A DNA stretch of 26,788 nucleotides, from assembly GCA_026770585.1 (NCBI GenBank), contig MU646373.1, positions 305,899 to 332,686 on the forward strand, read 5' to 3'. This document shows positions 1 to 26,788 of the stretch, piece after piece. The first letter of the stretch is position 1, and every line of letters starts with the position of its first letter. Both the position numbers and the translations under genes were made by a program. This stretch comes from Baffinella frigidus. Its lineage: Eukaryota; Cryptophyceae; Cryptomonadales; Baffinellaceae. The notes under the pieces are model-generated. The model saw only the letters and a list, made by a program, of their open reading frames with translations. It ran no database searches and had not been told where the DNA came from.

Positions 1-30
1 AGGGGGGAGGAAGGAGGGGGGGGCACGCAC

Positions 31-66
31 GTAGTCGCCGGCCTCGGAGACAGCGATGCTTTTGAC
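31..66 (-). CDS. WD40 repeat exon (left edge)
   Basis: Acceptor TCGATTGCAG, donor TAC|GTGCGT, 12 codons, phase 0: VKSIAVSEAGDY, a WD40 strand pair (SIAVSxxGDY). The gene continues beyond the window. Confidence 0.6.
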
Positions 67-3000
67 CTGCAATCGAGCGTCCAAGTTCAGGGCCGAACAT
101 GCGAAAACAGTAAGCAGGTTGCCTCACTCCCACCCTCATGTGCGCGAAGGTGAGGCAGACCAGGAGCACACGAAGGCATCCCTGCCAAGCTTATCTCAAA
201 GAATATATTTATTAATGTCTTTCCTGCCAACGCAAATCACTACACGGATTCTTGACAGTTGGAGTGTGGTCCAATTGTGCAGTATTTTTCTTTTCAAGAA
301 AGACAGCAATCAATATAATCTTTGAGACACACGCGTTGGGGATGGAGGGACCTGGTCAATCTGGACCGCGAATTCAGCACGAAGGCTCCCTCCAGGGAGG
401 TCCCACGCTCGCACCCGCCCCGCCTGCCGCACGCACACAAGCAAGGGCCGTCAGACCCATAGCTGACTGACTCGTTGGGCTGACTCTTGTCAGTCAGCCC
501 GAGAGCTCTCGGGTTATCCATAACCCGCACAGCGTGGCTCGAGCTCGTAACCCGCACAGTGTGGCTCGAGCTCTTGGCGGCCTGACTGTTTGGAAACGCG
601 CGAACAGTGTATGGTTTATGCTAATGGTTAATGGTTCATGCTTTACGGTTTATGGTTTATGATTGATGGTTTCGAGTGTAGGAAACGAGACCTTGCACGT
701 GGACGCGAGGAGGCAGCCAGACGCGGAGAGAGCCACGCCCGTGACTGCTTCCGCGTGCCCCCGTAGAGTCCACCGGCACCCCGCGGCCCCGCTCGAATCC
801 TGCCACGCCAGAGTGCAGGAGGGTGTTGATTTTTTTAAAACACCACTGGTGGTGTTTGTTGACTTTTGAAAACCACTGCCTTGAGGGGAAATTGACTTTT
901 GGCAACACCTTCCTTGAATCTGGCGTGGTGCGCGTCACCAAACAATTTTGTGAACCAAGGTTTTGACTTGATTCCTCGGAAGTCTCCCACCACACACACC
1001 CTTCGCGCCGTTATATCGACTGTATTCGGGGTAAGCCCTGAAACTTCTTGCTCAGGGAGGGGCACGTGGTGTCTAATCGAGGCTATCACACTGGAACTGG
1101 TTCTACAGGATGGCCGTGATTCCTTTGGGACCCCCTGAGCTCAGGCCACCATAAGCGACGCGACCCGAGGCGATTGCGCGGAGGGAGGAGGAGGGGGGAG
1201 GAGGGAGGAGGGAGGAAGGAGGACGGAGGAAGGAGGACCCGGGAGGGAGGAGGGACGACGGAGGAGGGAGGAGGGAGGAAGGAGGGGGGGAGGGAGAACC
1301 TGGTGGGTAGCGCGGGTGAGGCTGATCCACGGGGGGCGCCCCGACGTCCCGGACCTCAGCGCGCGCAGCACCGCCGTCGTCTGCGTCGCCTCGCCTGATA
1401 TGATAGGGTTTGGATTCTCGATCTTCCAGGCCATCTGGAAAGGATATGACACCCAACTGAAATCATATCTGCGTCGCCTCGCCTGGAAAACGTGTTGTGC
1501 ACGGGTTGGTGTGTTTCGGACTGTTTGGGACGGTGTTGAGGACGGGTTGGCGTGTTGGGGACGGTGTTCTACACGGATTGGTGTGTTAGAAAAGGCGTTG
1601 GTGCCGGGAGGGGGGCACGCCTGAAATGATATCAGCAAACATTTAACACCGAGGACGTGTGGGGACGCGGGGGCAAAGTGTTGGGACGCAGCGGTGGCGC
1701 GGGGGGAGGGGGGGGAGGGGTCACCTCGCGCGTTGGCGGCTGCCTGGAAGAGAAAGGTGGGGGAGCGTGCCACGCGCGTGCGGTTTGCTAGTAGGAACCG
1801 CCGCATCTCCCCCGCCGCGCCTGTTAGATACGCGTGAGTGTTAGACACACGCGGGCGAGTGTTAGACACGCCAAAGCGAGTGTTAGATACACCCGGGCGA
1901 AAGTTAGACACAACCGGGCGAGGGTTAGACACACCCACGCGAGGTTGAGACACACTCGGTCGAGAGTTTGCCATACTCGGGCGAGTGTGAGACACACCCG
2001 GGCGAGTGCCTGCCGTGTGTAGAGAGAGGTTGGGCGCTGGGTACGGTACGAAACGTCGCTGCATACACAGACAGAATGCATTCTCGGCGGAGTCTTGCCA
2101 TAGGGGGGGGGCGCGACAGCGTGACAGCGACAGCGCGAGCCATAGACTCGGAGCACGAGAACGAGAACGAGAGCGAAAGAGAGTGCACCACTGGGATCAG
2201 CAAACCCAGGCAGGAGCGAGTGCTAGAACTCGCAAGGCTCCGCGAGATCCGACCCTCTCTGCTTCGCGCGGAGGGGGGGGGGGGTCCACAAGGATACCGA
2301 GCATTTGGCCGCCCCCTCCCCCGTCGGCGCGCGGGGCAGACGCGTCGTGGGATCTGTCTCTCTCTGCGTTGTATGTGTGTGTGGGGGGGGGGCAACGATA
2401 CCGAGCATCTGGCCGCCACCCGACCCGTCGTGCGCGGCAGAAGCGCCCCGGGATCTGTCCCTCAGATCTGTCCCTCAGGGGGGGGGGGTACCGAGCATCT
2501 GGCCGCCGCCCGAAGCGTCGTGGGCGGCAGAAGCGTCTCCCGTCCGCACGCCCAGGCGGAGCAGCAGGTGCTGGTGTAGCAGATCGTGCACCTGCAACAC
2601 ATGCCAGCTTTCGTCAGTTCCAATGGCGGATCTTGATCGACTTCCGCGGGGGCACAACACACCCCGCACGACAGACTGGCAGTGCTCCCGCCCGGTGCTG
2701 ATCGTGCGAATGCTCCCTTGCAACCTGGTGAGTGTGTCGCACCGTAGGGTGCATGTCCTGCGGACAAATCAGGATGAGGAGATGCGGCAGCGCGGGAGGA
2801 AGGATGCGTGGGAGGCAGCGGGTTCAGGGGATTGGGGTTTGGGTTTTGGGGTTCAGGGTTTAGGGTTTGCGGTTTAGGGTTAAGGGTTTAGGGTTTAGGG
2901 GTTTAGGGTTTAGGGTTTAGGGTTCAGGGTCTGGGGTTTCGGGTTTCGGGTTTCGGGTTTCGGGTTTCGGGTTTCGGGTTTCGGGTTTCGGGTTTTGGGT

Positions 3001-6000
3001 TTCGGGTTTCGGGTTTCGGTTTCTAGCTTTAGTGTTGAGGGATGCGCAACCTGGTTGCCGTCGCACTTGAGCTTGCAGTAGGCCAGGTCGGTCAGGCACG
3101 CTTCTGCCGCGTCGTGCAGTCCCGCCCCGATCTGCGATTTCATGCGAGAACAAATTCAATGCGGGAATATATGCGATCTGCCGATCATCCGCGATTTAAT
3201 GCTGGGTCATGTTCAATTGCGCAAAGCGGTAATGCACAGGATGTATGTTGCAGTCCCACCCCGATCTGTCGAGCAACCGCGATTCAATGCGGGAACATGT
3301 TCAATTTGAGTCACCTGTTTGCTATCTTAGGGGTGGTGTTTTGCTCAGGGGCGGATCCTCGGCAGACCCGCCCTGATCTGCCCACGCCCCGCAATTTACT
3401 CCCTGACCACACTCGAATCGGCAATGTACAGGATTCCTGGTGCACACCCAGGTATGTTAAACCCCTGCAAGTGAGTTAAGGTCAGAAATGGCTCCCTGCT
3501 TCATGCACATCTGGGATAAACATATCCAGGGGCGTGAAGAGATTTCAGGCACGCGGCGGCATGACGTTGCACCCCTGTCCAACAGCCTCTACACGGCCAG
3601 GGCTGAGACGTGTTCAGCTGAGTTCCTCCCCAGGAGGCGAGACCATCTACAATATCGGCACTACTGAACGCGGGACACGACAGGGGACACGCCGGGCGAG
3701 AAGAGGGACGAGAAGAGAGGTGGCAGAGGGGGGGGGGGGGGCACAGACCATCTGAGGCACAAGCTCCCGCAGCTTCCTCCAGTTGAGCACCCGCCCCCGC
3801 CCGCCCCCATCCTCCCCCTCCCCATGCCCCGCAACATCCGAAGGGGGATCCCAGAACCACGGCTGCCGCGGAAACATGGGATGTTCCATCATCTTCTTGT
3901 GCGCCTTCGCCGCCTCCTCCTCGGCCCCGGGCCCTCCCAGCGCGTCGTTCGAGAGAGGCGCTGGGGCATGGATGGGGCGGATGAGGGCGACGGGGGTGGT
4001 GAACCAGCGGTCGGGGGCGTTGCGGCCAGCGAAGTAGGCGGAGAGCAGAATGTGCGCCGCGCGTTTCATCTTCTGCGCCCCCTCTGCCCCCGGGCCCTGC
4101 GCACGGCGCACCCCACTGGGTGAGTCCCCCTGCACGGAAGTGTGCGATTCTCGGATGCATGGAAGGTTGCCCTCTTGCCTCTGCAAGAGGGCACACAGGT
4201 TTGCCGAGGAGAGAGATGCGCTGGGAGGTTCAGCCAGCGGTGCGTGTTCTTACGCGGTCTCCCGGGCCGAGCAGAAGCGGAGGAGGTTGGGAAGCTGCTG
4301 GAAGTAACGGCCTCACCACGAAACCCCAACGCACGCCCACACCAAGAAGCCCAAAGCACCGCTGCCTGTTCCACTACAGCAACATCTTCCGCGTCCTTCG
4401 ATGCAAGGACCTCTGCATGCTCCTCACCACTAGGCGCATGCAAAGCACACCAAGCACCCCCCCACATCCCCGGGTGAGACCACACCGAAAAGCACACCGC
4501 CACCAACCAGGACAGGGTAGCAGCCTCTTGCTCCACAGAGGGGGGCAAGACCTTGTCGTTCTGGTCGCACCGCACGCCCCCACTAAGCAGCCCATCACCA
4601 CAGCGCCAAATATCCCGAAACACTATGCACGCCCCCACCTCAGCAAACAGCCCTCCTCCCCATTAACGGTGCTTCCCCCTACGGGCGAGACCACGCCAAA
4701 ACGCCCACCGGCAGAGCGCGCGGGCGAGACCTCATCGTGAAGCACGCGCCGCCTGATTTTGCAAGGACCGCTGCTTGCTCCTCACCACGACTAGGCACAT
4801 GCAAATCACACCACGCCCCACATCCCCGGGGGAGACCTTATCGTGAAGGGCGCGCCACCCAGCAGCAGCAAGCGCCGGGTGCGCAAAGGACAACACCGCC
4901 TCCAAGCCATCTGCCGCGCGCGTCCGCAACAACACCTGTGTACGCCACGCCAGGTCATTAGTCGGAAATTCAGGACGCAACGGTTCGTTTCGTGGTACTA
5001 AATGGTACGTAGCCACCCCCGCCAAGTCGCGACAGTTCGTCATTTCCACGTCCGGTCCGAACACAACATTTCCGGATGCGGGTACAACAGCGCCTCCACA
5101 CCATCCACCGCGCGCGTCCGCAACAACATCTGCCACGCAAGGATGATCGAAACATCCACGTTTGACATCTTTCGAGGGAAACCCCTTGAATCCTTAAGTC
5201 AACCACGTCAGATCTTACGTGGATAAGGCGTCGGTTTCCCTCGATCAGTCTGGCGTGGTGTATACGGTAGCGTCCAGGGTGTAGGGTGTAGCCTGTGTAC
5301 GGTAGCGTTCAGGGTGTAGGGTGCAGCCTATGCACGGTGGCTTTCAGGGTGTAGGGTGTAGCCTATGTACGGTAACACGACACCAGCCCCTACCACAACT
5401 CAACCCAGGTCCCCCTACTCCCTACTCCCTACACCCTACACCCTACACCCTACACCCTACACCCTACACCCTACACCCTACACCCTACACCCTCAACCCT
5501 CAGGGTGTAGGGTGTACCGCCATGCCCCGCAGCACCCGCAGCGCCACCAGGTGCGTCAGCGCGACGCCAGCCGGGAGGGCTGTGTGCGCGGGGGTTTGCG
5601 CGGGGGGGGGGGAGGTGGTTGGTTTCTTGGAGTGGGCGTGCGGGGCGACGAGCATGTCGAGTAGCTCCTCTTCTGAGAGACCTGTTTTTTTTGGAAGGGG
5701 GGGTTAGGGGTTAGGGGTTGGAGCTGGTGGTGGGCGGTGCGCGAATTTTTGGTGAACATCAGGAGCGGAGGAAAGGGGAGGGGGTCCAGGGTTTAGGGTT
5801 AAGGGTGTGCGGTTAGTGTTCAGGGTTTAGGGTTTATGTATGTGTTGGGGGGGGGGGAGGGTACCAGCGGTGGAAGCGAGCAGGAGAGCCACCACACACT
5901 GCACTTCCGCGCGTCCTGCACCCCCAACCAACCATCGCCAGTCATACACACCCACACCCTACACCCTGAACCCGGAACGCTACCGTGCAAGGACTTCGTT

Positions 6001-9000
6001 GACTGTGCCACTACGCACTGCACTTCCGCGCGCCCGTCACACACCCCATCATCAATCGTCAGTCATACACCCCCCCTCAATCGGCCGGCCAGTAATCGTG
6101 AGACATACACACCCACCTACACCCGTCGCAAGACCGCAACCAGAAAGGAATCAGGAGGGCATAGGGTTTAGGGTTTGCAGGCCTACCCCCCCCCTTCACC
6201 AGCAATCGTCAGTCTATTCGCACCTACACCCTACACTCTGAACCCTGAACGCTACCGTACAAGGGCATTGTTGACGGTGCCACGCGCCTCTACAAGGACC
6301 CCATCAGCAATCGGCAGGTCACAGCCTCTCGCAGCTACACCCTGCATCCTCAACGCTACCGTGCAAGGGCATCGTTGACTGCGCCACACCCGTCTACACG
6401 GACCAGGTAGAGCGATTTTCACGTTTGTTGGCCGCGTGTAACCACACAGCGGACTTCGAAGGGGTTTTGGATAACCCCTAAGCGGTAAGACCTAGAACCC
6501 TACTGTAGGCAACCCGGAGGGGCATAGGGGGGTTCCTGCGGATGAGGTAACGGGAAATCGGGCACTGAGTGCCCAAAAATTCCGAAAATCCCCTCGTAGC
6601 CCTCTGTGTGGAAATGATGAAACAATGGCAAAGTTGACTGTTCTGGTACTGAACCATCAACGTTTGCCGTGGTTTCATCCTTTTTGTGGCCGACAGATGC
6701 GAAAACCGCGTTACCAGTCGCAAGACCACGCCCCGCCAAGCGGCAGGGGCGGGAGCTCATGGTATATTTCATACACGGGGGTACATTTCAGGGCTAAGGG
6801 TTCAAGATGGGGGTACATTTCAGGGCTCAGGGTTCAAGATGAGGGTGCATTTCAGGGCTAAGGGTTTATTCGAGCAGGGGGCTCACCATGGCGTTGCATA
6901 AGGCGTTGGAGATACTGGAAGGCAGCCTCCTCCGCCGTGTTGGGCGCGTGACTCCTGAGGCCCGAGGCGTGCGGCCGGTGGTCGTCGCTGTGCTCGATGT
7001 CCCCCTCCTGCCCGAGCGTTGTGCGTTTAGGTTTGACGGGTTAGGATTTGGGGTATCCACACGGTGGGCTACAAGGGTCTCGTTGACCCTGGATTCCAGG
7101 GTGATACGTGACCAATCTGCATCAAGAAAATCCGTAAAGTTAATTGTCTTGAGGCCCGAGGCGTGTGGCCTGTGGTCGTCGCTGTGATGTCGCCCTCCTG
7201 CTTTCGGGTTCAGGGTTTAGGGTTCGGGGTTTGGGGTTTGGGGTTTGGGGTTTAGGTTGTGGGGTGTGTGTTCTAGGGATTAGGGGTTGGGAGTTAGGGG
7301 TTAGGGGTGAGGGTTTAGGGTTTAGGGTTCAGGGTGCAGAGTTTAGGGTGTGGGGTTTAGGGATTCGGGTGTAGTGTTCAGGGTGTCGGGTTTCGGGTAT
7401 CGTGTTTCGTGTTGCGTGTTTCGTGTTTCGTATTTCGCGTTTCGTGTTTCGTGTTTCGTGTTTTGGGTTTCGGTTTTCGGGTTCTGGGTTTCGGGTTTGG
7501 GGGTTCCTGCTCGAGCAGCTCAGCGCGCCTCACAGCCTCAACGTCGAACGCAACCACCAGAACCAACGGCTCCAAGAACCCCCCCCCGCCGCCCTCGATC
7601 AGCTCCTCCCCAGCCCCGGCGGACCCCCCCTCCTTGGAGAGGGTCGCCTTGGGGGGCGATGGGATGAGGTGTGGGAGGAAGGCCGGGGGGACGGGTGAGC
7701 CGTGTTCCTGGTTTAGGGTTTAGGGTTTAGGGTGTGGGGTTTAGGGGTAAGGGTTTAGGGTTCAGAGTGCAGGGTTTAGGGTTGAGGGTTTAGAGTGTAG
7801 GGTTTAGGGTTCAGGGTTCAGGGTTCAGGGTTCAGGGTTCAGAGTTTACGATTGAGGGTTGAGGGGTGTTCCTGGTTGACGCGTTTGAGCAGGCGCTCTG
7901 GCTCGCCGCCAGAGGCCCGGATGCCCTGCAACCTCACCACCTGCCACGCCGGAGTGCAGGGGGGGGGTTGATTTTTCAAAACCGTGTCAGGACACGGTTG
8001 TTGTCTTTTGAAAACCACTGCCTGGAAGGGGAATTGACTTGTGGCGACCCCTTCGAAGACTCTGGCGTGGTGTGCTGAGGCGGGGTCGTCTTGAGGTTCG
8101 TGGACTTTTCGATCACGCATCGCTAGGACGAGAGTAGTTAGGCAGGAGAAGAAGACGAAGAAGACGACGACGACGAAGAAGAAGAAAACGAAGAAGAAGA
8201 CGAAAAAGAAGAAGAAGAAGAAGAAGAAGAAGAAGAAGAAAAAAAGACGAGGGAAAAGAAGAAGAAGAAGACGAAGACAACGAAGAACAAGAAGAAAAAG
8301 AAGAAAGAAGAAGAAGAAGAAGACGAAGAAGAAGAAGAAGAAGAAGAAGAAGAAGAAGAAGAAGAAAAAGGAGCACCTTCCCGGCGACGGCGCGGAGGTA
8401 AGCGAGGGCGCCCTGGCCAGCCGCCGAGCACGATACCACCACCTACCACCGCGCCCGGGAGTTACCACCCGATTCACTCTACATATGCCCATTGTGACTG
8501 GATATGATAGAAGGCGTCCCACTTGAGGCTGAAAGAGGGACTGTTTTAAATGTGGGATTGTTAAATTTAGTACCAGTCACGGGCAGGTTTGGTCACGTAT
8601 CTGGGGGAATTCCCCCAGATACGTGACCAAACGCCCCTATTTGTGTGAAATTTACTACACATATCATTTTTTTTCTTCACTTGTAAAAGAATCCCTGTTT
8701 TAAAATAGCCACACTTCTAGCCTCGAGTGGTCCGCGGCGCGTCACTCGCCTGCCGCGTCTTTGCGCCAGGGGGTGTCCATCCTTCCGTACACAGCGCTGT
8801 GTAAGTGTGCGTGGTGTGCGTGGCCTCCTGCGTCATCACATTCTGCAACCTAGCCTCTGTGGTTACGTGGGGGAGGGGGTGCATGTCGGCTTGATGCATG
8901 GCGGCGGCCTCCTAGGGCTTCCTAGGGCGAGAGGAGTGGGCGGAGCCTTCTATGGCGGGCTCGTCAGACTATTGTATCACTCAACTCAAGGCTGAAGGGC

Positions 9001-12000
9001 CTGTCCAGGGCCTGTATCAAGAGTAATAAAGAAGAGAAGAAGAACAAGTCTCCTAGGGCGAGCGAGATCCTAGGGCGAGCGAGATGGTTGCTGACCCGAA
9101 CATGCGGGGGCAAGAGCGGCTGCTGGCCATTGACAGTCGAAACAGGCAGCCAATTCAGCAGCCCTCGCAGGTCCTCCTCCCCCCACCACTCCCCCCCGCC
9201 CCCAGCGACGTCGTCGAATTTCTCCACCCCCCCTCCCGCGGTGGCGGCGCCCTGCGCCTTGCGGCCCTCTGCTGCGGCCGCCGAGAGTCGCACCTGCGGG
9301 CCGCGCGGGGTCCGGCGTCAGCAGCCAGAACCGCTTCTCAAAACCGGCTTTGGGAGCACCGTGTGTGACTGATGAGAGCTTTCCCGGGTGCTTCTGTTCG
9401 CCCGGCCCGTCGCAGCTCAGACGCCGAGGCAGGAGCAGATTTCGAGGTGGTACGATGCGGTCCAGAGCGCTGCACGTGCAGCGGTCTTGCCTTGGATGCG
9501 CGCGCGATTACCGACAGGAGCCGATCGGATCCAGGAGGGGCGATGCGGTCCAGAGCGTGGGGGGGGGGAGGAGGAGGACCTCGCGAAGCACGTCGAAGGC
9601 ATCAAGCACAATCACAAGCGGCGACACCGCCGACGCCCGCCCCGCCTCATCCCGAAACCTCGCACTCAGCTCCGAAAACCCCCCAGCGAAGTCATGTTTC
9701 CTCCGGAACTTATCCAGGTACGTTGGACCCGCCTCGGCGATGCGGCGCCAGCCTCTGGGGCGTGAGGCGGCGTCGCTCCCGCCCCCCCACCCTGATGCTT
9801 CGTCCACCTGCGTACCCCCGTTTTTAGGCGCTAATCTGGACAAGACCAGAGGACATGAGGTACCAGTGCACCACCCAGGGATGAGCCAGGGCTACGTGTG
9901 TGACAGAACCCAGCGATGAGGCAAGGGCGCGTGTGTGGCTGGGCGGTGGACACCAGATGGGGCCAAGTCACCTCCCCCACCAACGGGAGTTCCCACCACC
10001 TCAGCAAGTCCAACTCAACCAGCGCAACTCACGTCCCCAGCCACTGAGAAGCGTGTGTCTCAAGACTTGCAGTAGGGGAAGCGAAACGGAGCTGGGTTCA
10101 GGCGCAGGACTTAGGGTTCAGGGTTGAGGATTGGAGAGTCGAGGTGGTAAGGTGTGGCTTGGCCTTATCGAGGTCGTCAAGGTCCAGCATTTCGAGTTGA
10201 GGGTTTAGAGGAGAAGCCAGGTGGTTCTGCCATGTTGGGGGTTGACCTTGTCGGAATTGATGGGGGTTAGGGGTTAGGGCGTTATACCAGAATTCATGGG
10301 GGTTGGGGGTTAGGTCCTTTGGGGGTTTGGGGGGGTGACTTTATCGAGATCATTGAGGACCAGCATCTCGAGCATACGCCCAAAAAAGACACAGAGTTTA
10401 CGGTGCTGGGTTCAGGTTCAGGTTCAGGACTGAGGGTTCATGGTTGAGGGTTTGAGAGTTGAGGGGGTAATGACTGACCTTATCGAGGTCGTTGAGGACC
10501 AGCATTTCGAGCATGAGGCCATGCACCAACGCCTCGATCTGCACCAACACCCCGGGGAACGTGATGAGACTCCATCGACACCATGGGAGAAACCACATGC
10601 TCTCTTCGACACAAATGCAGAAACCATATGGAACGTGAAAACAAGAAGCAGCCATAAAAACATATTGAGCCATGGAAAGCATGAAGCAAACACATCAAGG
10701 AGGCGGTTGGGTGCGGGGGCAGACCTCCTCGGACGGGAGGGTGGTTCCGATGAGGCGCGTGAGGATGCGCGCGCGCGGTGGGAGACGTGCCGCGAGCACT
10801 CCCACGAGAGATGACATCAGCGCTGACCCGCCCACGCCTGGCCCGCTGCACGCGAGGGAGGAGCGCGTTCAGCTGGCGCGTGAAGGGTGCAGCCACCACG
10901 GGTGGCGTTCAGGAGCCACGAACCACGTTCCTTCGTTAGTGCTGTTCAGGCATTCGTGAGTGTTGTTCGGGCACCACTAACGAAGGAAGTAACTAGCTAA
11001 CCACTTCACGAAGACGAAGAATAAGAATAGAAACATGAAGCAGAGGAAGAAGAAGAAGAAGCAGAAGAAGAAGAAGAAGAAGAAGAAGAAGAAGCAGACG
11101 AAGAAGAAGACCTCCCGCGCGTCATCGATGCTCTCCGTGCGGCGGCATCGTGGCGCAAGGGATTCGTAAGAAAATTTCATAGAGAATCCGTTTTGATTTA
11201 AAACTTACTGGCCACGAAATTTACCACACAGAATGAGTTTTACTAGTAATATTAAAGCATTCGTGTAGTAATTTTCATTAAATCACAAGTTTTGAATTAA
11301 ACCCGTTTTCTTATGAAATTGTTCCGCACAGAAACGACTGTATCACACTGTAGAAGGTCGTGCATGACCCTGCGAGCATCCGGGGCAGCAGACCCCCCCG
11401 CGCCGGAGGAGATGTACCACAACGCTCCCTACGATCGCTGGAAAAGGTGCAGTACTCTTGACCGCTTCCGCCGCGGGAATCATCAACGTGTGCCATTCTC
11501 TCATGATGTTCGGTGGCCACCAGATGCAAAAACGGTGCAGATGGTGCAGGGGTTACGTGCGGAGGGTTTCGGGATCAGGTGGTGTCACGGGGGAGACCTG
11601 CACTCAAGTAGCGTCAACGGGGCTGGCTGTGCCATGCCCCCAGCCACGGTCTCAGCCAGCTCGGCCATCAAGTGCCCCCACGAATCGGCAACGGGCGCGC
11701 CGGCAGCCATCCCCACGCGTCGCGCGTGCGCCTCCACTGCCAGCCCGTGCGCGCGCGCCTGCTTAGGGCGTTGGGATCAGGGTTGACGGTGTGGGGGTTG
11801 AGCCCGGTGGTTGTGGCGGTTCGGTGCAGGCATCCCCATCCGCCCCCTCCCTGGAGGCCTCTCCCCCTGCGCGAGTGAAGAGCGCCACTGCGACGCTGGA
11901 CACAACACGGTGTCTTCAACGAAATGGTAAGAGGCGGGCTCAACCCCCAAACCGTCAAGCGCGACACCAGCACCCTCGATGCGCCTGCACTGAAGGCTGC

Positions 12001-20127: not shown

Positions 20128-20506
20128 TGCGGCGCCCGGGCGCTAGCGGAAGATGCCAGCCAGGTGTGCGGAGCGGTAGTCTCGGGAAATTGTGGCTGGC
20201 GGAAATCTGTAGCCAGAAAACTCGGAAATCCCCAGGACCCCTGGCCCGCGTCAATTTCTGCCCAGCCCCAGGACCCCTGGCCCGCGTCAATTTCTCAGTA
20301 GGCCCTTCCCTTCAAAATTTGACCAAAAGACGATGTGTCCGTATATTAATGTGGCTACGGCCCGTATATTGACAGGCAAGCGTTGTGTGGTGTCAACTTT
20401 TCACATCGATCACTTTTGGGAGGTCACTTTGAATTTTTAGCCAACTTAAAACGTCGGTAAAGGGTGGGTCGTGGAGGGCGTCACAGGGGGAGGCATCGGG
20501 GTCACG
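20128..20506. promoter_or_regulatory. divergent promoter region between the NACHT-WD40 and CH genes
   Basis: The two predicted starts face away across 379 bp. It contains a 29-bp tandem duplication (20231-20259 and 20267-20295) and two CCGTATATT repeats near 20339 and 20360. The right-hand two thirds also exist as an inverted copy at 18818-19056, with the TATATT/TTGACAGGCAAGCGTTG block conserved. Transcription start sites are not identifiable by eye. Confidence 0.45.
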
Positions 20507-23303
20507 ATGGACGAGATGGACCTCATGTCCCAGGACATGATGCAGGACATGGCTGCGCTCGAGGCCCAGATGGATCAGCAGATGGGCCTCTCGGTAAGCA
20601 AGGACCACTGTTTCTGACATGCACACTCGAATCTCGGCATGAATTCCGCCTGCATACTTCCGCCGCATGACTGTCAGAGGGGAGCCTCCTGGAGGACCTC
20701 GGGGATTTTCGTGCGCGCAATGTCGGCGATTCGTGGTCGTCTCTGTGTTTTGTAACGAGCACAGAAGCAGCCGTTTCTGGGTGTGCCACGCCTCATCACC
20801 AGAAACCTCTGAGAACCCACATCTGGGTTGGAGGGCGAGGTGTGTCTTCTGGGAAACACACCCGGGGCAGTGCAACGTTGTATCCGCCTAATCCGATTGC
20901 TGGCGGCGCAGGCGCCGGTTGCTGCCAGCAGCCACGTTGAAGATGTGCCAACTCCTCAGGAGACCCCCAGCCGCGACAGCCGTGGAGGATCCAGCCGCGG
21001 CGAAGGAGGAACCTACGACGGAAACTACACTGGGTCAGAGGAGAGCGTGATCGCTCAGTGGATCAAGGACGTGTCGGGGGAGGACGTAGACCCCGCAGAT
21101 CTGCAGGGCAGCCTCCGAACGGGCACCATCCTCTGCGAGCTGGTGCGATTCTCTGGGACATTCTGGGTTGTGCGGATCCCTTTCCGTTCCTGTCTTGCCG
21201 TGCGGCTTTCAGTACAAAAATTCCGAAGTATTTCTTGCGCGAAATGGTGAAAAGGGGGTGGGTTTTTTTCTTGCATGGTAGCGGCAGATGCTTCTGTGAG
21301 TTGCGTACCAATCTTTTCTTGCCAACACCTGTGCAGCTTGCTCGATCCTGTCAGATTTCATCAACCCCCCAACCTCTTCCGTATGCTGGTTCTCAGACCA
21401 CAAATGCCTTTTTGGAGGGGTTGTCGGGCGGCAAACGCGGCTCAGAAAAAGCTGGCTCCCGCGTCATGGCGCTCAGGCTGGCAGCGACTGGGCATCCGCG
21501 GCTCTGGCGTGTCAGCTGACAGGGAAAAGCGTGGGTGGCGAGCGTGTCTTCTGACGCGCGAGAGGGTGTGTGGCGAGCAGGTGAACAAGATCAGCCCGAA
21601 GGCGGTGCGGAAGATCAACACCTCGGCGATGCCGTTCGCGCAGCGCGAGAACATCCAGAACTTCTGCGACGCGGTCGCGCGGCTGGGCGTCAAGGACATC
21701 AACTGCTTCGCGGCCGACGATCTCTTCGAGGGCAAGAACCTCAAACAGGTCCCTCTCGCCCCGCGCCTGGAATGCCGTCCGCCTCCCTTCCAGAAGTGCC
21801 ACGGCCGTGGCCGAGCCCGCCTCAGCACTCTTGGCCACACGCGGCTCCGAGCAGGGGAGGGTGGGGCGAGCGTGCGTGGCAGACGGGTGGACACGCTGGT
21901 GGTGTTACGAGGCGGGCGGCGCCGGTCGAGGGAGTGGCAGCAGCTGAGGGCGGGTGTGGGCAGGTGGCGATTTGCATCGAGGCGCTCGGGAAATTCGTGT
22001 GGACGATCCCGGACTACTCCGGGCCGGCGATCGGCAAGGCGGACGAGGCGGCGCCGAAGCCCCGCGTCTTCAACGGTGCGGGCGAGTCGCTCCCGATTCA
22101 GGCGCGCTCCTCCTCCTCCTCCGCCGCCGCCTCCCCCCTGATCGCTCCGGCGTGGCAAACTGCCTGACGCTAGCGCCGCTTCGGCGGCAGTGCTGACGCT
22201 GCACAGGAGACGTCAGTGCTGGCGATGCACAGCAGGCTGTCTGTGCACGCGCCAGAGCGCGCGAGGATGCGGCGGGGGGTGTCGCGGCACAAGGAGTGCG
22301 TCAGACCAAGTTGCGCGGCATGTCTCTGACGAGAGGATGGGTGTGCTGGGCGGCAGGGGACGGCGAATGTAGCAGCGTCTCCGTCAAGGGGCAAGTCGTA
22401 CAAGTGGGAGGTCAAGGCTGGCGGGTGCGTCCCCTTCGCAGCCCCTGCCCTTGGAGCCCACGCTCTTCCTCGCAGTGCGCCCCGCTGGACGCGCCTGCCC
22501 GTTGGCGCCCCCGCGCTTCCTCTCAACGACCACGATGCGCACGATGCCGGATCTTTGCGGTGCTGACCCCCCCCCGCGGCATGTCCGCAGGTCGTTTGCC
22601 CCGCAGATCCCATCAGCTGTGAAGAAGGAGGCGGAGCAACGCGACTCGGAGGAGCACCGCCACCAGAGGAAATGGGAGGTCAAGTTCGCGCCGCCGATGG
22701 CCACAGCCACGCGCCGCACTACCGTGGTCTCCTGCCGCCCCGCGCCACCCCTGCCAGACCGCGCCGCCCTGCTTGCTACCCTCCCCCCCCCCTTCCCCCA
22801 CGCGATAGCCACGGCCACGCGCCCCACCACCACGCGTGGTCTCCTGCCAGACCACGCAACCCTCCTTGCGGCCCTCCCCCTTTCCCCCATATACCCCGCA
22901 AAAGAAACGATGGCGCACGGCCGCATGGCCTGACGAACGAGTCAGGGGATTCCCGCGGGGGGGCATGTACAGTCCCGGGGAATTCCAGAGAGGTCATCCG
23001 ACGCATGTGCCCCCGCATGAAAGATTGGAGATCGTCGATGTGAGCAAGTATCTCTTCCTGACGGCTGGGGCGTGCTCGGGTCGGCAGGTCAGCTCGGACG
23101 TGATGAACTACCTGAATCAGTTCAGCGACGAGAGCCAGCTGCGCACGACCATGGGCACGGGCGAGCATGCCGCCCAACACCAAAAGCCTCCGCAACAACA
23201 AAAGGCACCCCCCTTCGTCCGATGTGGACTCGATGCAGCACTATCTGTGCCGCCTTTTCCCTGCCAGAAAGCGGCCTTTGAAGGAATTTCGAATAGTCAT
23301 TAA
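20507..23303 (+). CDS. calponin-homology (CH) domain protein, multi-exon gene
   Basis: Predicted exons: 20507-20593, 20912-21142, 21581-21748, 21964-22075, 22376-22410, 22607-22678, 22989-23039, 23088-23303. The first is a Met/Asp-rich acidic start (MDEMDLMSQDMMQDM). Exons 2-4 carry a type-3 (calponin/transgelin-like) CH domain: ESVIAQWIKDVSGEDV, LRTGTILCELVNKI, KINTSAMPFAQRENIQNF, DLFEGKNLKQ, VAICIEALGKFV. CH domains of this type bind actin or act in cytoskeletal signalling. Donors are GTAAGC, GTGCGA, GTCCCT and GTGCGG; junctions are phase 0 except after exon 4. If exon 4 is not spliced at 22075 the protein ends at 22167 after a Ser/Ala tail, giving about 229 residues, close to calponin-like size. 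Exons 5-8 are less certain and might belong with the armadillo gene downstream. Confidence 0.68.
20912..21142 (+). CDS. CH gene exon 2 (CH domain start)
   Basis: Acceptor GCTGGCGGCGCAG, donor CTG|GTGCGA, 77 codons, phase 0. A Ser/Glu-rich lead, then SEESVIAQWIKDVSGEDVDP and SLRTGTILCEL, the first helices of a calponin-type CH fold. Confidence 0.72.
21581..21748 (+). CDS. CH gene exon 3 (CH domain core)
   Basis: Acceptor GTGTGGCGAGCAG, donor CAG|GTCCCT, 56 codons, phase 0. VNKISPKAVRKINTSAMPF, then FAQRENIQNFCDAVARLGVK and ADDLFEGKNLKQ. The INTSxMPFxQxENIxNF and DLFExKNLxQV blocks are diagnostic. Confidence 0.8.
21964..22167 (+). CDS. CH gene exon 4 (CH domain end)
   Basis: Acceptor GGGTGTGGGCAG, phase 0. 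VAICIEALGKFVWTIPDYSG, then PKPRVFN. The frame stops at 22167. An internal donor (AACG|GTGCGG) at 22075 would let it continue into 22376-22410, which joins in frame. Confidence 0.66.
   Translation: MAICIEALGKFVWTIPDYSGPAIGKADEAAPKPRVFNGAGESLPIQARSSSSSAAASPLIAPAWQTA
22376..23303 (+). CDS. possible 3' exons of the CH gene
   Basis: Four in-phase candidates: 22376-22410 (SPSRGKSYKWE), 22607-22678 (IPSAVKKEAEQRDSEEHR then HQRKWE), 22989-23039 (RGHPTHVPPHERLEIVD) and 23088-23303 (VSSDVMNYLNQFSDESQLRT, then a Gln-rich tail). The first two end in the same TGGGAG|GTCAAG exon-end and donor, a duplication. The last reads through to a stop inside an inverted-repeat element, so its end is doubtful. Confidence 0.35.
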
Positions 23304-23424
23304 GCGATAAGACCTAGGACCCTAGGGTAAGCAATCCGTAGGGACATAGGGGGGTTCCTACTGATAACGTAACGGAAACTCGGGCTCTCAGAGCCCGAAA
23401 ATCCCTTGGTAGCCCGATGTGCGG
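23264..23424. mobile_element. inverted-repeat element C, copy 2
   Basis: Direct-orientation relative of copy 1 with centre hairpin 23381-23397 (CGGGCTCT, C, AGAGCCCG). The reading frame of the last CH-gene exon ends within it. Confidence 0.68.
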
Positions 23425-23515
23425 TTGAGGCGGGTGGGCGCAAAAGCCGTGGTGTGTCCGCGGAGGAGGGAGTTCCGGCGACGCACGGCGCCGCCTTGTC
23501 CTGACGCACGGCTCC

Positions 23516-26500
23516 ATGCCGCAGAAGTCTGGGGATACAGTGCAGAAGAAGCTCGCGAAGGATAGCGAGGCGCACAAACCAAGCGCGGATGCGCAGCCGA
23601 GTACACGAGCAGCGCCCATCGAGGGCGTTCCCGTGGAGGGGGCGCAGCCTGTCGAGGACTTTCGCCAGGAGGATGAGGTCCCGCCCCGCTCGCACCCGCG
23701 CTGTTGCGCGCTCCAGGCCGTGCAGCCGATTTGCATGCAGCGTGCGGTGCCCCTCTCTTGCACGCCAGGCGTTGCATCAGGTTTGCATGCGGCGTGTGTG
23801 TGCCTGCAGTGTGGCAGCAGCATGGGTACCGGGCGAGGCGGGGGTGCTGAGGCATGGCGGGCGGCGCGGCGGGACAGGAGGAGGAGGGGGAGGAGGAGGA
23901 GGCGGAGGAGGAGGGGGATGACACGACGGCCTACCAAGGAGTGCCGCCCGCGGGGGTGGTGGAGGGCCTGATGATGATGCTCACGTCCCCCGACGCGACC
24001 GAGAAAGCCAAGGCGGCTGCGGCGCTCTGCAATATCTGCTCCGAGACGGACAGCAACCGCGAGCTTGTCGTCAACGCGGGGGTGCGTCCCCGCCCCTGCC
24101 ACCCGCACCATGAAACCACCTCCCGCCTTTCTTCCCAGCCACACTCTGCAACCACCACCAAGGAAAGGGGTGAATGATGAAGTGTTCTCCATCCTGTGGG
24201 ACGCGGGCCTTTGCGGGATCGTGAATGACAGGATGCGGGGATGCGGCTCGCTGGGTGTGGGACAGACGCTGCCGGCGTCGGTGCCGCGTGTGGTTGGGTG
24301 CTGCTGCCATTCCATGCGTGTGGATGGCGGTAGGGCTGACGGCGCGCCGTGTGCGTGGACTCCGCGTGGCAGGCGGCAGTGCCGTGTGCCAGCGTCAGTC
24401 CCACCAAGGATGGCCGCCCTCCATCAATCCCCGACGTGATCCCGCTTGGTAATGGCAGGGGCCGGCGAGGTGATTGGTGTTAGGCCGAAGATGAAGGTTG
24501 CAGTTGTGAACACGTGCAGCATGTGGGGTGCAGGGGCTCCCCTCGCCATCGACAATCTGAGCCAGCATCAATCCCGGCAAGGGTTGACACCCTACTCCCG
24601 GCGCGAACCTAATCCCGCTTGGTAATGGCAGGGGCTTCTTCTTCTTCTTTATCAACCTCGTAGAGTCCCTGTGAACAGGTCCCAAGCCTTCTGCAAAGTG
24701 ATCAAACTGCTAACTACCCACTCGAGAATGCTAGAGGGCCCTATTTATATGTGGGGTTGTAGATGTTTGTACCAGGATAAGGTATTCCAACTTCGTGACT
24801 GGCCAATATATGGCTAGTAACGTGACCAATCAACGAGAGTTACTACACAAATGCCCACTTTTTAAAGCACCCTGGTTTTAAATAGGCCCCTCTAGCGTTC
24901 TCGTGTGGACGCACCGTTCGCCCTGACGGCAGGGGCTGCCCTCGCTAATCGACATGCTGGGCCAGCGTCAATCCCAGCAAGGGCGGCCGCCCTCCATCCG
25001 TCCCCAACGTAATACCGCGTTGGGCAGGGGTGCCGTGTGCCAGCGTCAGTCCCAGCAAGGGTGGACGCCCTACTTCAATCAGGCGCCAACCTAATTCCGG
25101 TTGCATGACGGCAGGGGCTGCCGTCGCCGATGGACATGGTGATGAAGCCGTCGCCGGAAGTGGCGTTGATGCACAGCGCTTGCCGGGACTGACGCCCTGC
25201 ATCCATCCCCAACGTAATCCCGCGTTCCTGAATGCAGGGGCTGCCCTCGCTGATCGACATGCTCATGAACCCGTCGCCGGAGGTGCCGTTCATGCAGAGC
25301 GCGGCTGCTGCGTGCATCTGCAACCTCGCCGCCAACATCAACTCCAAGGAGGTCAGGAACCGTAAAAGAGCCCGGTCTCGCCATATCGCCTCGCCCAAAT
25401 AGTCTGCGCCCAAAATAGCATCGGCAACCTCGCCGCCATCATCAACTCCGAGGAGGTCACTATGTGTGCGCAGACTATTTAAGCTCATGAGACCGGGCGC
25501 GCTTTGGAGCGGAAAAGTTGGCGGGTTTGTACCATACACCCAGCGCGTCGAGTTATGAATAGTCTGCCAAGCCGCGTGCGTCTGCAACCTCGCCGCCAAC
25601 ATCAACTCCAAGGAGGTCAACCCTAATCCCTAATCTCTAAACCCTGAACCATAAACCATACACCATACACCATACACCTTACACCATACACCATACACCA
25701 TACACCATACACCATACACCATACACCATACACCATACACCCTGGTTTAACCCCTGAAGCCGTTGAACCCCTTAGGGTTTAGGGTTAAAACCTGGCCACC
25801 AACATCAACTCCAAGGAGGTCATCGCCGCTTCGGCAGCCTGAACCCTAAACCATTAAGAAAAAAACATAAACCATACACCATAAACCATAAAACATAAAC
25901 CATAAACCATAAACCGTAAACCGGCCAGCTCACCCCGCCACCTCGCTGGGCTGGTGTAATCCCCCCCCTCTCCTACCTCTGTTGAAGCCAAGGCAGGAAC
26001 CAGGTGAGCGATTTTTTCTGGGGTTGGAGCCATTTGTGTAATACTGAAATCTTGAGGAGGCATCTGCAATCTCCCTTTCTAAAATCAACTCCAAGGAGGT
26101 CACTATTTCGGTGAGAACTATTTGGGCGAGGCGATTTTGTGAGACTGGGCGCTTTGGAGTGGAAACGTTGGCGGATTTGTACGACACACGCAGCGTGCCA
26201 ACTTGAGAATAGTCAGCCAACCCGCGTGATTCTGCAACTTTGCCGCCAACATCACCTCCAAGGAGGTGAACCCAAACCCTGAACCATAAACCATAAACCA
26301 TAAACCCGTGTAAACCCTTGGGGTTAAAACGCCAAGGCCATCATCAACTCCAAGTACGTGAGAGCCACGTCGACTGCCTAAACCCTGAAACCTAAAACCT
26401 AAACCCCAAACCCTGAACACCAAACACCAAACACCAAACCCTAAACCCCAAGCCTCAAACCCCAAACCATAAAACGTAATCCCTAAACCCTAAACCCTAA

Positions 26501-26645
26501 ACACCAAACACCAAACCCTAAACACCCAACCCTAAACCCTACACCCTCAACCCCAAACACCAAACCCCGAACCCGAACCCCGCAGGTGATCGCGACGTCG
26601 GGGGCGCTGGAGGTGCTCGTGGAAGTCCTCCGCTCCGACAACCAG
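23516..26645 (+). CDS. armadillo-repeat protein, multi-exon gene, 3' end beyond right edge
   Basis: Exons: 23516-23677, 23878-24081, 25238-25351, 26586-26645, all phase 0. The protein starts MPQKSGDTVQKKLAKDSEAH, has a Glu-rich run across the first junction, then armadillo (ARM) helices: GVVEGLMMMLTSPDATEKAK, AAALCNICSETDSNRELVV, NAG-GLPSLIDMLMNPSPE, SAAAACICNLAANINSKE, VIATSGALEVLVEVLRSDNQ. ARM repeats form superhelical protein-binding scaffolds; the partner cannot be inferred. The Asn-Ala-Gly turn is split across an exon boundary as if the exons were never separated. The second intron (24082-25237) and third (25352-26585) are full of fragments of the exon they flank. The first ATG might instead be internal, making this the 3' half of the CH gene. 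Confidence 0.7.
24381..25237. repeat. dispersed acceptor plus exon-start repeats, ARM intron
   Basis: A ~75-bp unit (GCCAGCGTCAGTCCCACCAA, GCCGCCCTCCATC, AACGTAATCCCGC) ending in TGGCAGGGGCTGCC occurs about five times. The final part mimics the 25238 exon start with its CAG acceptor. Element A copy 2 sits among them. Confidence 0.65.
24718..24908. mobile_element. inverted-repeat element A, copy 2
   Basis: Ends CCACTCGAGAATGCTAGAGG and CCACACGAGAACGCTAGAGG (inverted). Shares GTGGGGTTGT, GTACCAG, CGTGACCAA and TTACTACACA blocks with copy 1. It lies in an ARM gene intron. Confidence 0.7.
25238..25351 (+). CDS. ARM-repeat exon, source of intronic exon fragments
   Basis: Acceptor CCTGAATGCAG, donor GAG|GTCAGG, 38 codons, phase 0. 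GLPSLIDMLMNPSPEVPFMQ then SAAAACICNLAANINSKE, one helical ARM unit. Its start recurs upstream with its acceptor, and its end recurs downstream with its donor. Confidence 0.75.
25372..25502. mobile_element. hairpin element carrying an ARM exon fragment
   Basis: Inverted ends GCCCGGTCTC and GCCCGGTCTCATG with inner AAATAGTCTGCGC pairs. Between them lies a copy of the ARM exon end with its GAG|GTCACT donor. A diverged relative of the right part recurs at 26146-26240. Confidence 0.58.
25416..26358. repeat. six copies of the ARM exon end plus donor
   Basis: ACATCAACTCCAAGGAGGTC-type copies at about 25416-25457, 25571-25618, 25788-25822, 26061-26102, 26228-26268 and 26331-26358. They are separated by CCATACACCATACA or CCCTAAACCC blocks. 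Decay differs between copies. Confidence 0.75.
25619..25930. repeat. CCATACA / ACCATAA array
   Basis: CCATACACCATACA array at 25650-25740 and AAACCATAAACC at 25840-25920. C-rich on the plus strand, which is sense for the ARM gene. Confidence 0.82.
26375..26580. repeat. CCCTAAA block ending at a 3' splice site
   Basis: CCCTAAACCC/CCAAACACCAAACC units run directly into CCGCAG, the acceptor of the last exon. Confidence 0.82.
26586..26645 (+). CDS. ARM-repeat exon at right edge
   Basis: The acceptor CCCGAACCCCGCAG sits at the very end of a telomere-like block; donor CAG|GTGCCC; 20 codons, phase 0: VIATSGALEVLVEVLRSDNQ. It continues NINSKE from the previous exon in typical ARM fashion. The following intron starts with a CCCATCCACCCTCCTCCCTC tandem repeat. 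Confidence 0.7.
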
Positions 26646-26649
26646 GTGC

Positions 26650-26788
26650 CCCCCACCCTACTAGCCCCATCCACCCTCCTCCCTCCCTATCACTCTCACT
26701 CCACCCTCCTTCCTCCCTCTCACTACTAGCCCCATCCACCCTCCTCCCTCCCTCTCACTACTAGCCCCATCCACCCTCCTCCCTCCCT
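26650..26788. repeat. CCATCCACCCTCCTCCCTCC tandem repeat
   Basis: Three near-identical copies of an ACTAGCCCCATCCACCCTCC unit follow the last donor; pyrimidine-rich on the sense strand. The window ends in it. Confidence 0.82.

What the first reader, a model, noticed from the sequence alone, without database searches (positions are those of the whole stretch)
1..26788. Exon ends plus 5' splice sites are duplicated again and again inside the following intron
The pattern repeats at six or more loci: 2272-2545, 4472-4850, 10163-10538, 13104-13255, 22400-22410/22670-22678 and 25238-26358. In each, the last ~20-45 bases of an exon with its GTC-type donor are copied one to six times, separated by telomere-like or simple repeats and with graded decay. 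Exon starts with acceptors show the same at 1394/1486, 5060-5115, 7142-7197 and 24381-25237. Tandem duplication of a segment containing AG|GT is a known theoretical route to new introns. Here it looks systematic and may lengthen introns or provide decoy or alternative donors.
Basis: partly seen in the sequence, partly recalled or inferred. Interest (0 to 1): 0.84.

Follow-up and report, generated by a model that had tools for sequence, protein, structure and literature searches.

The report
Exon edges copied into neighbouring introns
In a cold-water alga, introns contain repeated, decaying copies of the exon edges beside them, and one apparently young intron may still hold copies of the uninterrupted coding sequence it split, a possible fossil of how introns are born and grow.

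Summary
The window matches the cryptophyte Baffinella frigidus. In my gene models 5 of 30 exon tails have a strong copy in the following intron and 4 of 29 heads in the preceding one; controls for those nine never reach the scores. One listed site (22400/22670) is coding in both places; one missed site (22695/22803) fits. Per 40-nt window, exon edges are copied no more than intron interiors (9/59 against 66/524); per family, boundary-crossing ones are over-represented (10 of 16 hand-assembled; 8 of 11 automatic). Best reading: introns grow by repeated local duplication, and duplications crossing a splice site survive because the first donor and last acceptor still give the right mRNA. One intron goes further: at NSKE|VIAT (25352-26585) 14 other proteins of mostly unnamed origin read through without an intron, and two of its six tail copies, related to each other, resemble tail plus next exon head joined. 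That suggests Rogers-type intron birth, though the present boundaries do not lie in clean copies. A decoy-donor role is unsupported. Splicing and genome-wide extent are untested.

The parts
25238..25351 (+). exon c10 (armadillo repeat, ends NINSKE), source of the largest tail-copy family
   Evidence: Pfam Arm; own NCBI model P0012 and P0013 of unnamed origin; coordinates
25352..26585 (+). intron c10|c11, 1234 nt; 14 other proteins cross this point without insertion; holds six copies of the c10 tail
25418..25459 (+). tail copy 1 (35/38 exon bases), between inverted arms 25397-25412 and 25465-25480
   Evidence: DNA fold z -4.1
25571..25619 (+). tail copy 2 (43/45), followed by a telomere-like array
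25789..25838 (+). tail copy 3 (28/30), followed by sequence like the head of the NEXT exon: reads NINSKE-VIAASA
26060..26102 (+). tail copy 4 (32/38)
   Evidence: inside the block duplication 25418-25643/26060-26292
26224..26272 (+). tail copy 5 (37/42)
26330..26377 (+). tail copy 6 (22/25), followed by sequence like the next exon head: reads INSKY-VRATSTA; related to copy 3 by block duplication 25748-25846/26294-26385
26586..26645 (+). exon c11 (VIATSGALEVLVEVLRSDNQ)
24082..25237 (+). intron c9|c10; c10 head copies at 24529-24554, 24915-24958, 25092-25158 and repeated intron-end units (24362-24467, 24530-24634, 24929-25030, 25015-25123, 25106-25226); 11 proteins besides Baffinella's own cross this point without insertion
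22591..22726 (+). exon c6 (SFAPQIPS...TATRRTTV)
   Evidence: Rhodomonas transcript P0001
22803..22848 (+). copy of c6 tail plus donor GTCTCCTGCC in intron c6|c7, an intron not seen in 7 other proteins
13097..13137 (-). copy of e6 tail (exon e6 13228-13392) with donor GTTTC
13633..13673 (-). copy of e6 head in the preceding intron
13498..13537 (-). second copy of e6 head
10336..10382 (-). copy of e10 tail (exon e10 10479-10538)
10160..10202 (-). second copy of e10 tail, donor GT changed to GC
7708..7871 (-). intron e14|e15 as modelled, essentially a telomere-like array, bracketed by the direct repeat AACCAGGAACAC at 7866-7877 and 7702-7713
7157..7221 (-). copy of e16 head (exon e16 6887-7007) behind a telomere-like array
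5085..5142 (-). copy of e18 head (exon e18 4837-4935)
4469..4753 (-). three copies of e18 tail plus donor GTCTC (4721-4753, 4541-4592, 4469-4510); the last two weak (65-66% in the exon part)
2276..2445 (-). two copies of e21 tail plus donor (exon e21 2492-2591)

Best explanation
These are products of repeated local (tandem or near-tandem) duplication in the repeat-rich introns of Baffinella. When a duplicated stretch crosses a splice site, it leaves extra copies of 'exon end + donor' downstream of the true donor, or 'acceptor + exon start' upstream of the true acceptor. The gene still works if the first donor and the last acceptor are used, so such copies persist and decay, while duplications reaching deep into exons are removed by selection. 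At one intron (c10|c11) the process probably also made the intron: an AG|GT-containing piece of an uninterrupted armadillo exon was copied several times, splicing came to skip the copies, and telomere-like arrays and a fold-back were added later. Shown: the copies, their side and extent, and other proteins crossing the site without intron. Supported but not proved: internal copies of the uninterrupted junction. Inferred: slippage or template-switching repair as the copying step, use of the first donor in vivo, neutrality.
For: Strong copies only on the expected side: 5/30 tails and 4/29 heads, with nothing comparable in 59 wrong-side tests. They fade within 40-60 nt of the exon edge. Intron interiors also carry local duplicates: 66/524 windows, false positives 0/1068. 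Other proteins cross the c10 junction without insertion (14), c9 (11 besides Baffinella's own P0012) and c6 (7 besides the Rhodomonas transcript); several look genomic because they run into apparent introns elsewhere (P0014, P0020-22, P0028-29, P0031-34; by eye). Two c10 copies continue into sequence matching the next exon head at 12/18 each (other 28 heads: maxima 9 and 11) and 15/18 jointly; of 52,378 window 20-mers three others do as well, and of 2,968 that begin with GT none other than the exon head itself. All six later donor copies lie behind an in-frame stop, so the first donor is the only one that keeps the protein. P0012 joins c9 to the last acceptor, past every head copy.
Against: The present splice sites of c10|c11 do not lie in recognisable copies of the junction (intron start against next head 6/20, end against previous tail 7/15), so the simple two-copy Rogers scheme is not seen. 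The two junction-like copies are related by a later block duplication, so they are one event, and the stretch after copy 3 also resembles a GCCGCTTCGGCGGC motif at 22169-22188, which scores 16/18 jointly, better than the exon head; the junction reading could be chance. Over all 29 introns, start/next-head similarity is not significant (P 0.07-0.36) and end/previous-tail only weakly (P 0.01-0.10). The family-level excess at boundaries is larger than neutrality with twofold ascertainment predicts (10 of 16 against 3.6, P 0.0008; 8 of 11 against 3.9, P 0.012). The minus-strand gene has no homologue, so its exons are inferred.
Confidence: 0.58

Rival explanations
1. Rogers-type duplication is the general origin of most of these introns, not only of c10|c11: each arose when an AG|GT-containing exon segment was duplicated, and the copies are birth marks.
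For: Other proteins cross eight modelled plus-strand junctions without insertion (c2, c3, c5-c10), though for c2 and c5 partly by transcript or Baffinella's own model and at c7 and c8 with low identity (3-6 of 10-12). Modelled exon heads begin GT in 12 of 29 and tails end AG in 18 of 29. e14|e15 has a 12-nt direct repeat across both splice sites, 26/40 identity against a maximum of 24 in 812 other pairings.
Against: Of 11 tail copies tested only the two related ones in c10|c11 resemble tail plus next exon; none of 8 head copies is preceded by the previous exon's tail. In most other families the copy matches intron sequence beyond the splice site. P0005 and P0006 stop matching at the c2|c3 and c3|c4 boundaries, so those introns seem shared.
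Confidence: 0.17
2. The copies are selected decoy or alternative donors and acceptors that tune splicing.
For: GT kept in 14 of 15 tail copies and AG in 6 of 6 head copies whose alignment covers it.
Against: Donor bases enter a local alignment mostly when they match, and identity of the exon parts is already 0.83-0.91, so the excess is not clear. Every later donor copy of c10 lies behind an in-frame stop.
Confidence: 0.07
3. Copying is RNA- or splicing-directed (cDNA- or RNA-templated repair, reverse splicing), which would explain boundary enrichment and the junction-like copies.
For: Family-level excess at boundaries; two copies resemble the spliced junction.
Against: Most families carry intron sequence (donor plus up to about 100 nt, or about 80 nt of intron end), which a spliced template would not have.
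Confidence: 0.06
4. Fold-back or MITE-like elements captured exon edges and moved them locally.
For: Tail copy 25418-25459 lies between inverted arms, z -4.1; many near-palindromes in the window.
Against: Seen at one copy only; (25352-26200) found no such arm pair around the related copy 26060-26102, only an arm complementary to the distant one at 25365-25414.
Confidence: 0.05
5. Assembly artefact of a short-read assembly with collapsed or mis-joined haplotypes.
For: Illumina and AllPathsLG (PMC9756366 passages); an N gap lies in an array here.
Against: Copies are short, differ by 4-35% in the exon part and have their own flanks; haplotype duplicates would be expected to be long and near identical (my reasoning).
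Confidence: 0.03

Closest known systems
[quoted passage not shown]
   Same: Exonic segment containing AGGT duplicated; intron at an AG|GT site; intron not seen in other proteins; probable internal duplicate of the junction.
   Different: Here many copies, mixed with telomere-like arrays and secondary block duplications; present splice sites are not in clean copies.
Fission yeast genes SPOG_01682 / SOCG_00815, intron across several 24-bp AGGT duplicates (Zhu and Niu 2013, as cited in PMC4974935; original not seen)
   Same: An intron that spans multiple copies of the junction segment.
   Different: There a short tandem array; here about 1.2 kb with decayed, dispersed copies.
Potato RdRp intron gain by duplication crossing an intron-exon boundary (PMC4974935; abstract, introduction and start of methods read)
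   Same: Duplication crosses an existing boundary, as in most families here.
   Different: There it made a new intron; here it mostly lengthens an existing one.
Introners (Gozashti et al. 2022, PMC9860276, passages read)
   Same: Introns not shared with relatives in an aquatic protist; inverted-repeat elements lie in introns here.
   Different: Introners are copies of one mobile element at many loci; these copies come from the adjacent exon. Terms beginning cryptophy, Baffinella and Guillardia have 0 occurrences in that paper's main text.

Membership tests
Rogers tandem-duplication intron gain (c10|c11) | intron absent in relatives | tested here: met
Rogers tandem-duplication intron gain (c10|c11) | intron contains a duplicate of the uninterrupted exon junction | tested here: met
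   copies at 25789-25838 and 26330-26377; joint 15/18 with next exon head; 3 other 20-mers of 52,378 do as well, so chance is unlikely but not excluded
Rogers tandem-duplication intron gain (c10|c11) | donor and acceptor lie in two copies of the same exon segment (intron start like next exon, intron end like previous exon) | tested here: not met
   6/20 and 7/15
Rogers tandem-duplication intron gain (c10|c11) | spliced transcript skips the copies | tested here: inconclusive
   P0013 has the plain junction but may be genomic from an intronless relative; no Baffinella RNA was available
Rogers tandem-duplication intron gain (e14|e15) | direct repeat across both splice sites | tested here: met
   AACCAGGAACAC occurs in the window only at 7866 and 7702 (minus strand); 26/40. 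The exons are inferred, with a possible GT donor 9 nt upstream (by eye)
Rogers tandem-duplication intron gain (e14|e15) | intron absent in relatives | not testable with these tools
   no homologue of the minus-strand gene found
Introners | near-identical introns at unrelated loci | tested here: inconclusive
   within the window, exon-edge families occur only in their own intron and dispersed elements lie inside introns; the genome search did not complete, so nothing outside the window was compared
Tandem protein-repeat exons | copies encode whole repeats and are spliced in | tested here: not met
   c10 copies carry 25-45 nt of exon; junction NSKE|VIAT plain in 14 other proteins

The most novel reading that the evidence does not exclude
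Baffinella makes and grows introns by a running process in which AG|GT exon junctions are repeatedly copied next to themselves with telomere-like repeat filler at breaks, so that intron birth, intron lengthening and much of its sixfold genome growth over Guillardia share one repair-driven cause, with fossils preserved inside the introns.
Probability: 0.14. Interest if true: 0.82.

Novelty: new variant of a known kind. Interest (0 to 1): 0.5.

Why it matters
The source of newly gained introns is rarely identifiable (so argued in PMC4974935, read in part). A genome where introns still contain decaying copies of the exon junctions beside them, perhaps including an uninterrupted junction, would let intron birth by duplication be counted and dated instead of argued from single cases. 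It also warns that annotation of such genomes can miss donors: two public Baffinella models read straight through GTC donors here (P0002, P0012).

Tried and rejected
Rejected: the 22400/22670 item (coding in both places). GA-AG introns at e14 and e15: a GT upstream in frame exists for both (by eye), so not claimed. Functional donor retention: alignment bias. Array insertion with target-site duplication as a general rule: of 24 detected arrays, three had flank matches above the 99% control level (two of these matches being array-like themselves) and two more stood at 1.3%. STAND-type NTPase identity of the minus-strand gene is recalled from the look of its motifs only; Pfam and protein search gave nothing. 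Exon phases agree across e14-e21 (by eye), but e8|e9 do not, so an exon is probably missing there; c4|c5 and c7|c8 boundaries are tentative (c7|c8 has no GT donor as modelled).

Errors found and corrected: the next-exon test used a wrong offset and was redone; the first joined translation had a frame error at c4|c5 and was redone; the background (4 of 52,378; 1 of 2,968) included the c11 head itself, which separates (3 and 0 others).

The automatic family count was 8 of 11, expected 2.4, 3.9 and 5.0 at detection weights 1, 2 and 3, P 0 of 3000, 0.012 and 0.055. It missed e10 and e15|e16 as boundary families, probably through my array filter, and BLAST does not report very short spacings. The 16 families were assembled by hand; arrays of period under 20, telomere-like arrays, and the weak window hits in c8|c9 and e11|e12 were left out. 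The intron e21|> is a 500-nt stretch after the last modelled exon.

Led nowhere: viral contigs (12 stretches matched a pattern, none confirmed); paper searches on cryptophyte introners or splice sites and on telomere-like repeats.
Full report
WHAT THE WINDOW IS. A joined query from the plus-strand gene at 20.5-22.1 kb matched P0002, 'calponin homology domain-containing protein, partial [Baffinella frigidus]', whose residues continue letter for letter into the window's intron at 21749. P0012, T484DRAFT_1743612 of the same species, covers exons c9-c10. Both are listed with a longest contig of 973,455 bases. The paper on the CCMP2293 genome (PMC9756366; passages only) gives 534.5 Mbp, 6.1 times Guillardia theta, 41.1% repeats, Illumina reads and AllPathsLG. 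The plus-strand gene carries a CH domain (E 1.1e-19) and armadillo repeats (3.5e-13). The minus-strand gene has no database match above cut-off; its exons are inferred from open frames, splice signals and agreement of phase for e14-e21.

IS THE PATTERN THERE. I scored the last 40 nt of each exon against the following intron and the first 40 nt against the preceding intron, with the same query against non-adjacent introns as control. Strong tails: c6, c10, e6, e10, e21 (38-75; control maxima 20-25). Strong heads: c10, e6, e16, e18 (46-57; control maxima 20-26). Weak: e3 and e18 tails (26). e18 is kept because its duplication extends about 100 nt into the intron at 78% identity; e3 beat its 56 controls but one search found no copy, so it is not counted. 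Nothing in 59 wrong-side tests was comparable; the best was e10 at 28. The copies fade with depth into the exon: tails 5/30, 1/29, 0/24 at 0, 20 and 40 nt; heads 4/29, 3/28, 1/22, 0/20 at 0, 20, 40 and 60 nt. In all, 15 tail copies and 7 head copies were aligned.

IS IT MORE THAN LOCAL DUPLICATION IN GENERAL. Two counts disagree and both are given. By 40-nt windows, exon edges have a copy in the adjacent intron in 9 of 59 cases and non-array intron windows have a copy in their own intron in 66 of 524, with 0 of 1068 false positives: no excess. Many of those intron windows belong to the boundary families themselves. By families, an automatic count gave 8 of 11 crossing a boundary (expected 3.9 if such families are twice as detectable, P 0.012; 5.0 if three times, P 0.055). 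A list of 16, made partly by hand and adding short-spaced arrays, gave 10, where random placement expects 2.1, 3.6, 4.9 and 5.9 at detection weights 1 to 4 (P 0 of 4000, 0.0008, 0.008, 0.03). Twofold is what simple decay predicts when selection holds one copy fixed (my reasoning).

AN INTRON WITH ITS ANCESTRAL JUNCTION INSIDE? Exon c10 ends AACTCCAAGGAG and c11 begins GTGATCGCGACGTCGGGG (NSKE|VIATSG). P0013, P0020-P0026, P0028, P0029 and P0031-P0034 cross this point with no insertion: 14 proteins, of unnamed taxa, and some may come from one organism. Several run into apparent introns at other places (P0020-22 after EVLVQ, P0028-29 after IATSG, P0031 after AAAAQ; by eye), so they look genomic and simply lack this intron. 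The same holds for c9|c10 (11 besides Baffinella's own P0012) and c6|c7 (7 besides the Rhodomonas transcript P0001). Inside the Baffinella intron are six copies of the c10 tail. Two continue into sequence like c11: AACTCCAAGGAG-GTCATCGCCGCTTCGGCAGC (25789-25838) and AACTCCAAGTAC-GTGAGAGCCACGTCGACTGC (26330-26377). Each matches the c11 head at 12 of 18 bases beyond GT, better than any of the other 28 exon heads (maxima 9 and 11); at 15 of 18 positions at least one copy matches. Three other 20-mers of 52,378 on both strands reach 15 or more, and none of the other 20-mers that begin with GT (2,968 with the exon head). One of the three, a GCCGCTTCGGCGGC motif at 22169, scores 16, so the stretch after copy 3 could have another source. 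The two copies are related by a later block duplication (25748-25846/26294-26385) and count as one event. If the reading holds, the template was an uninterrupted junction: either the copies predate the intron or they came from spliced RNA. The first is simpler, because most copies in other families carry intron sequence.

A SECOND HINT. The intron modelled between RVNQ and EHGSPVP (7708-7871, minus) is a telomere-like array bracketed by AACCAGGAACAC, present nowhere else in the window. Its donor and acceptor surroundings are 26/40 identical, against a mean of 12.5 and maximum of 24 in 812 other pairings. No relative was found to show whether it is new.

HOW IT PROBABLY WORKS. Local duplication, perhaps by slippage or template switching near arrays, multiplies stretches of intron. 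Where a stretch crosses a splice site the gene tolerates it as long as the first donor and last acceptor are used; from c10 every later donor copy lies behind an in-frame stop. Telomere-like repeats lie within 30 nt of 12 of 22 copies against 7.7 expected (P 0.046), a weak association. Fold-back structure occurs around one copy. At c10|c11 the same process, acting on an uninterrupted exon with AG|GT, probably created the intron, as in the multi-copy fission-yeast case cited in PMC4974935 (part 1 of 5 read). The current splice sites of c10|c11 do not lie in clean copies, so the last steps are not reconstructed.

LIMITS. No Baffinella RNA and no DNA of relatives could be reached; the genome-wide request did not complete. 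That I found no report of widespread boundary duplication of this kind in cryptophytes rests only on search listings 14, 15, 18, 19, 40-42, 53 and 54 in an open-licence library and on the passages read.

Noticed in passing
donors of the 29 modelled introns: 12 of 29 donors begin GTC (GTG 9, GTA 2, GTT 2, others 4); public models P0002 and P0012 read through two of them (21749 and 25352) as coding. C at position +3 at this rate is unusual by what I recall of other eukaryotes.
   Followed up: partly
18725-19053 and 20264-20596: Inverted duplication, 83% identical, of the plus-strand gene's modelled first exon and upstream region; it ends 3 nt past the end of that exon (20593).
   Followed up: no
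177-344, 6612-6683, 8562-8654, 11173-11320, 11765-11976, 15369-15506, 15555-15727, 17900-18064, 18318-18412, 18436-18559, 19075-19238, 24718-24908: Twelve near-palindromic, MITE-like stretches. Dispersed similar pairs: 18438-18559/19098-19218, 8518-8576/24717-24775, 799-933/7940-8075 and 6442-6611/23264-23424.
   Followed up: no
25366-25510: Fold-back whose loop contains an exon-tail copy (z -4.1).
   Followed up: partly
22169-22188: GCCGCTTCGGCGGC hairpin-like motif in intron c4|c5 that also resembles the stretch after tail copy 3.
   Followed up: partly
window-wide; 12492-12932: Telomere-like heptamers cover about 9% of the window; the 441 N lie in one gap inside such an array.
   Followed up: partly
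8147-8370 and 11010-11110: Long GAA/GAC-rich tracts beside exon ends on the minus strand (e13 ends at 8377; a possible exon end near 11110 with donor GTCTTC, by eye).
   Followed up: no
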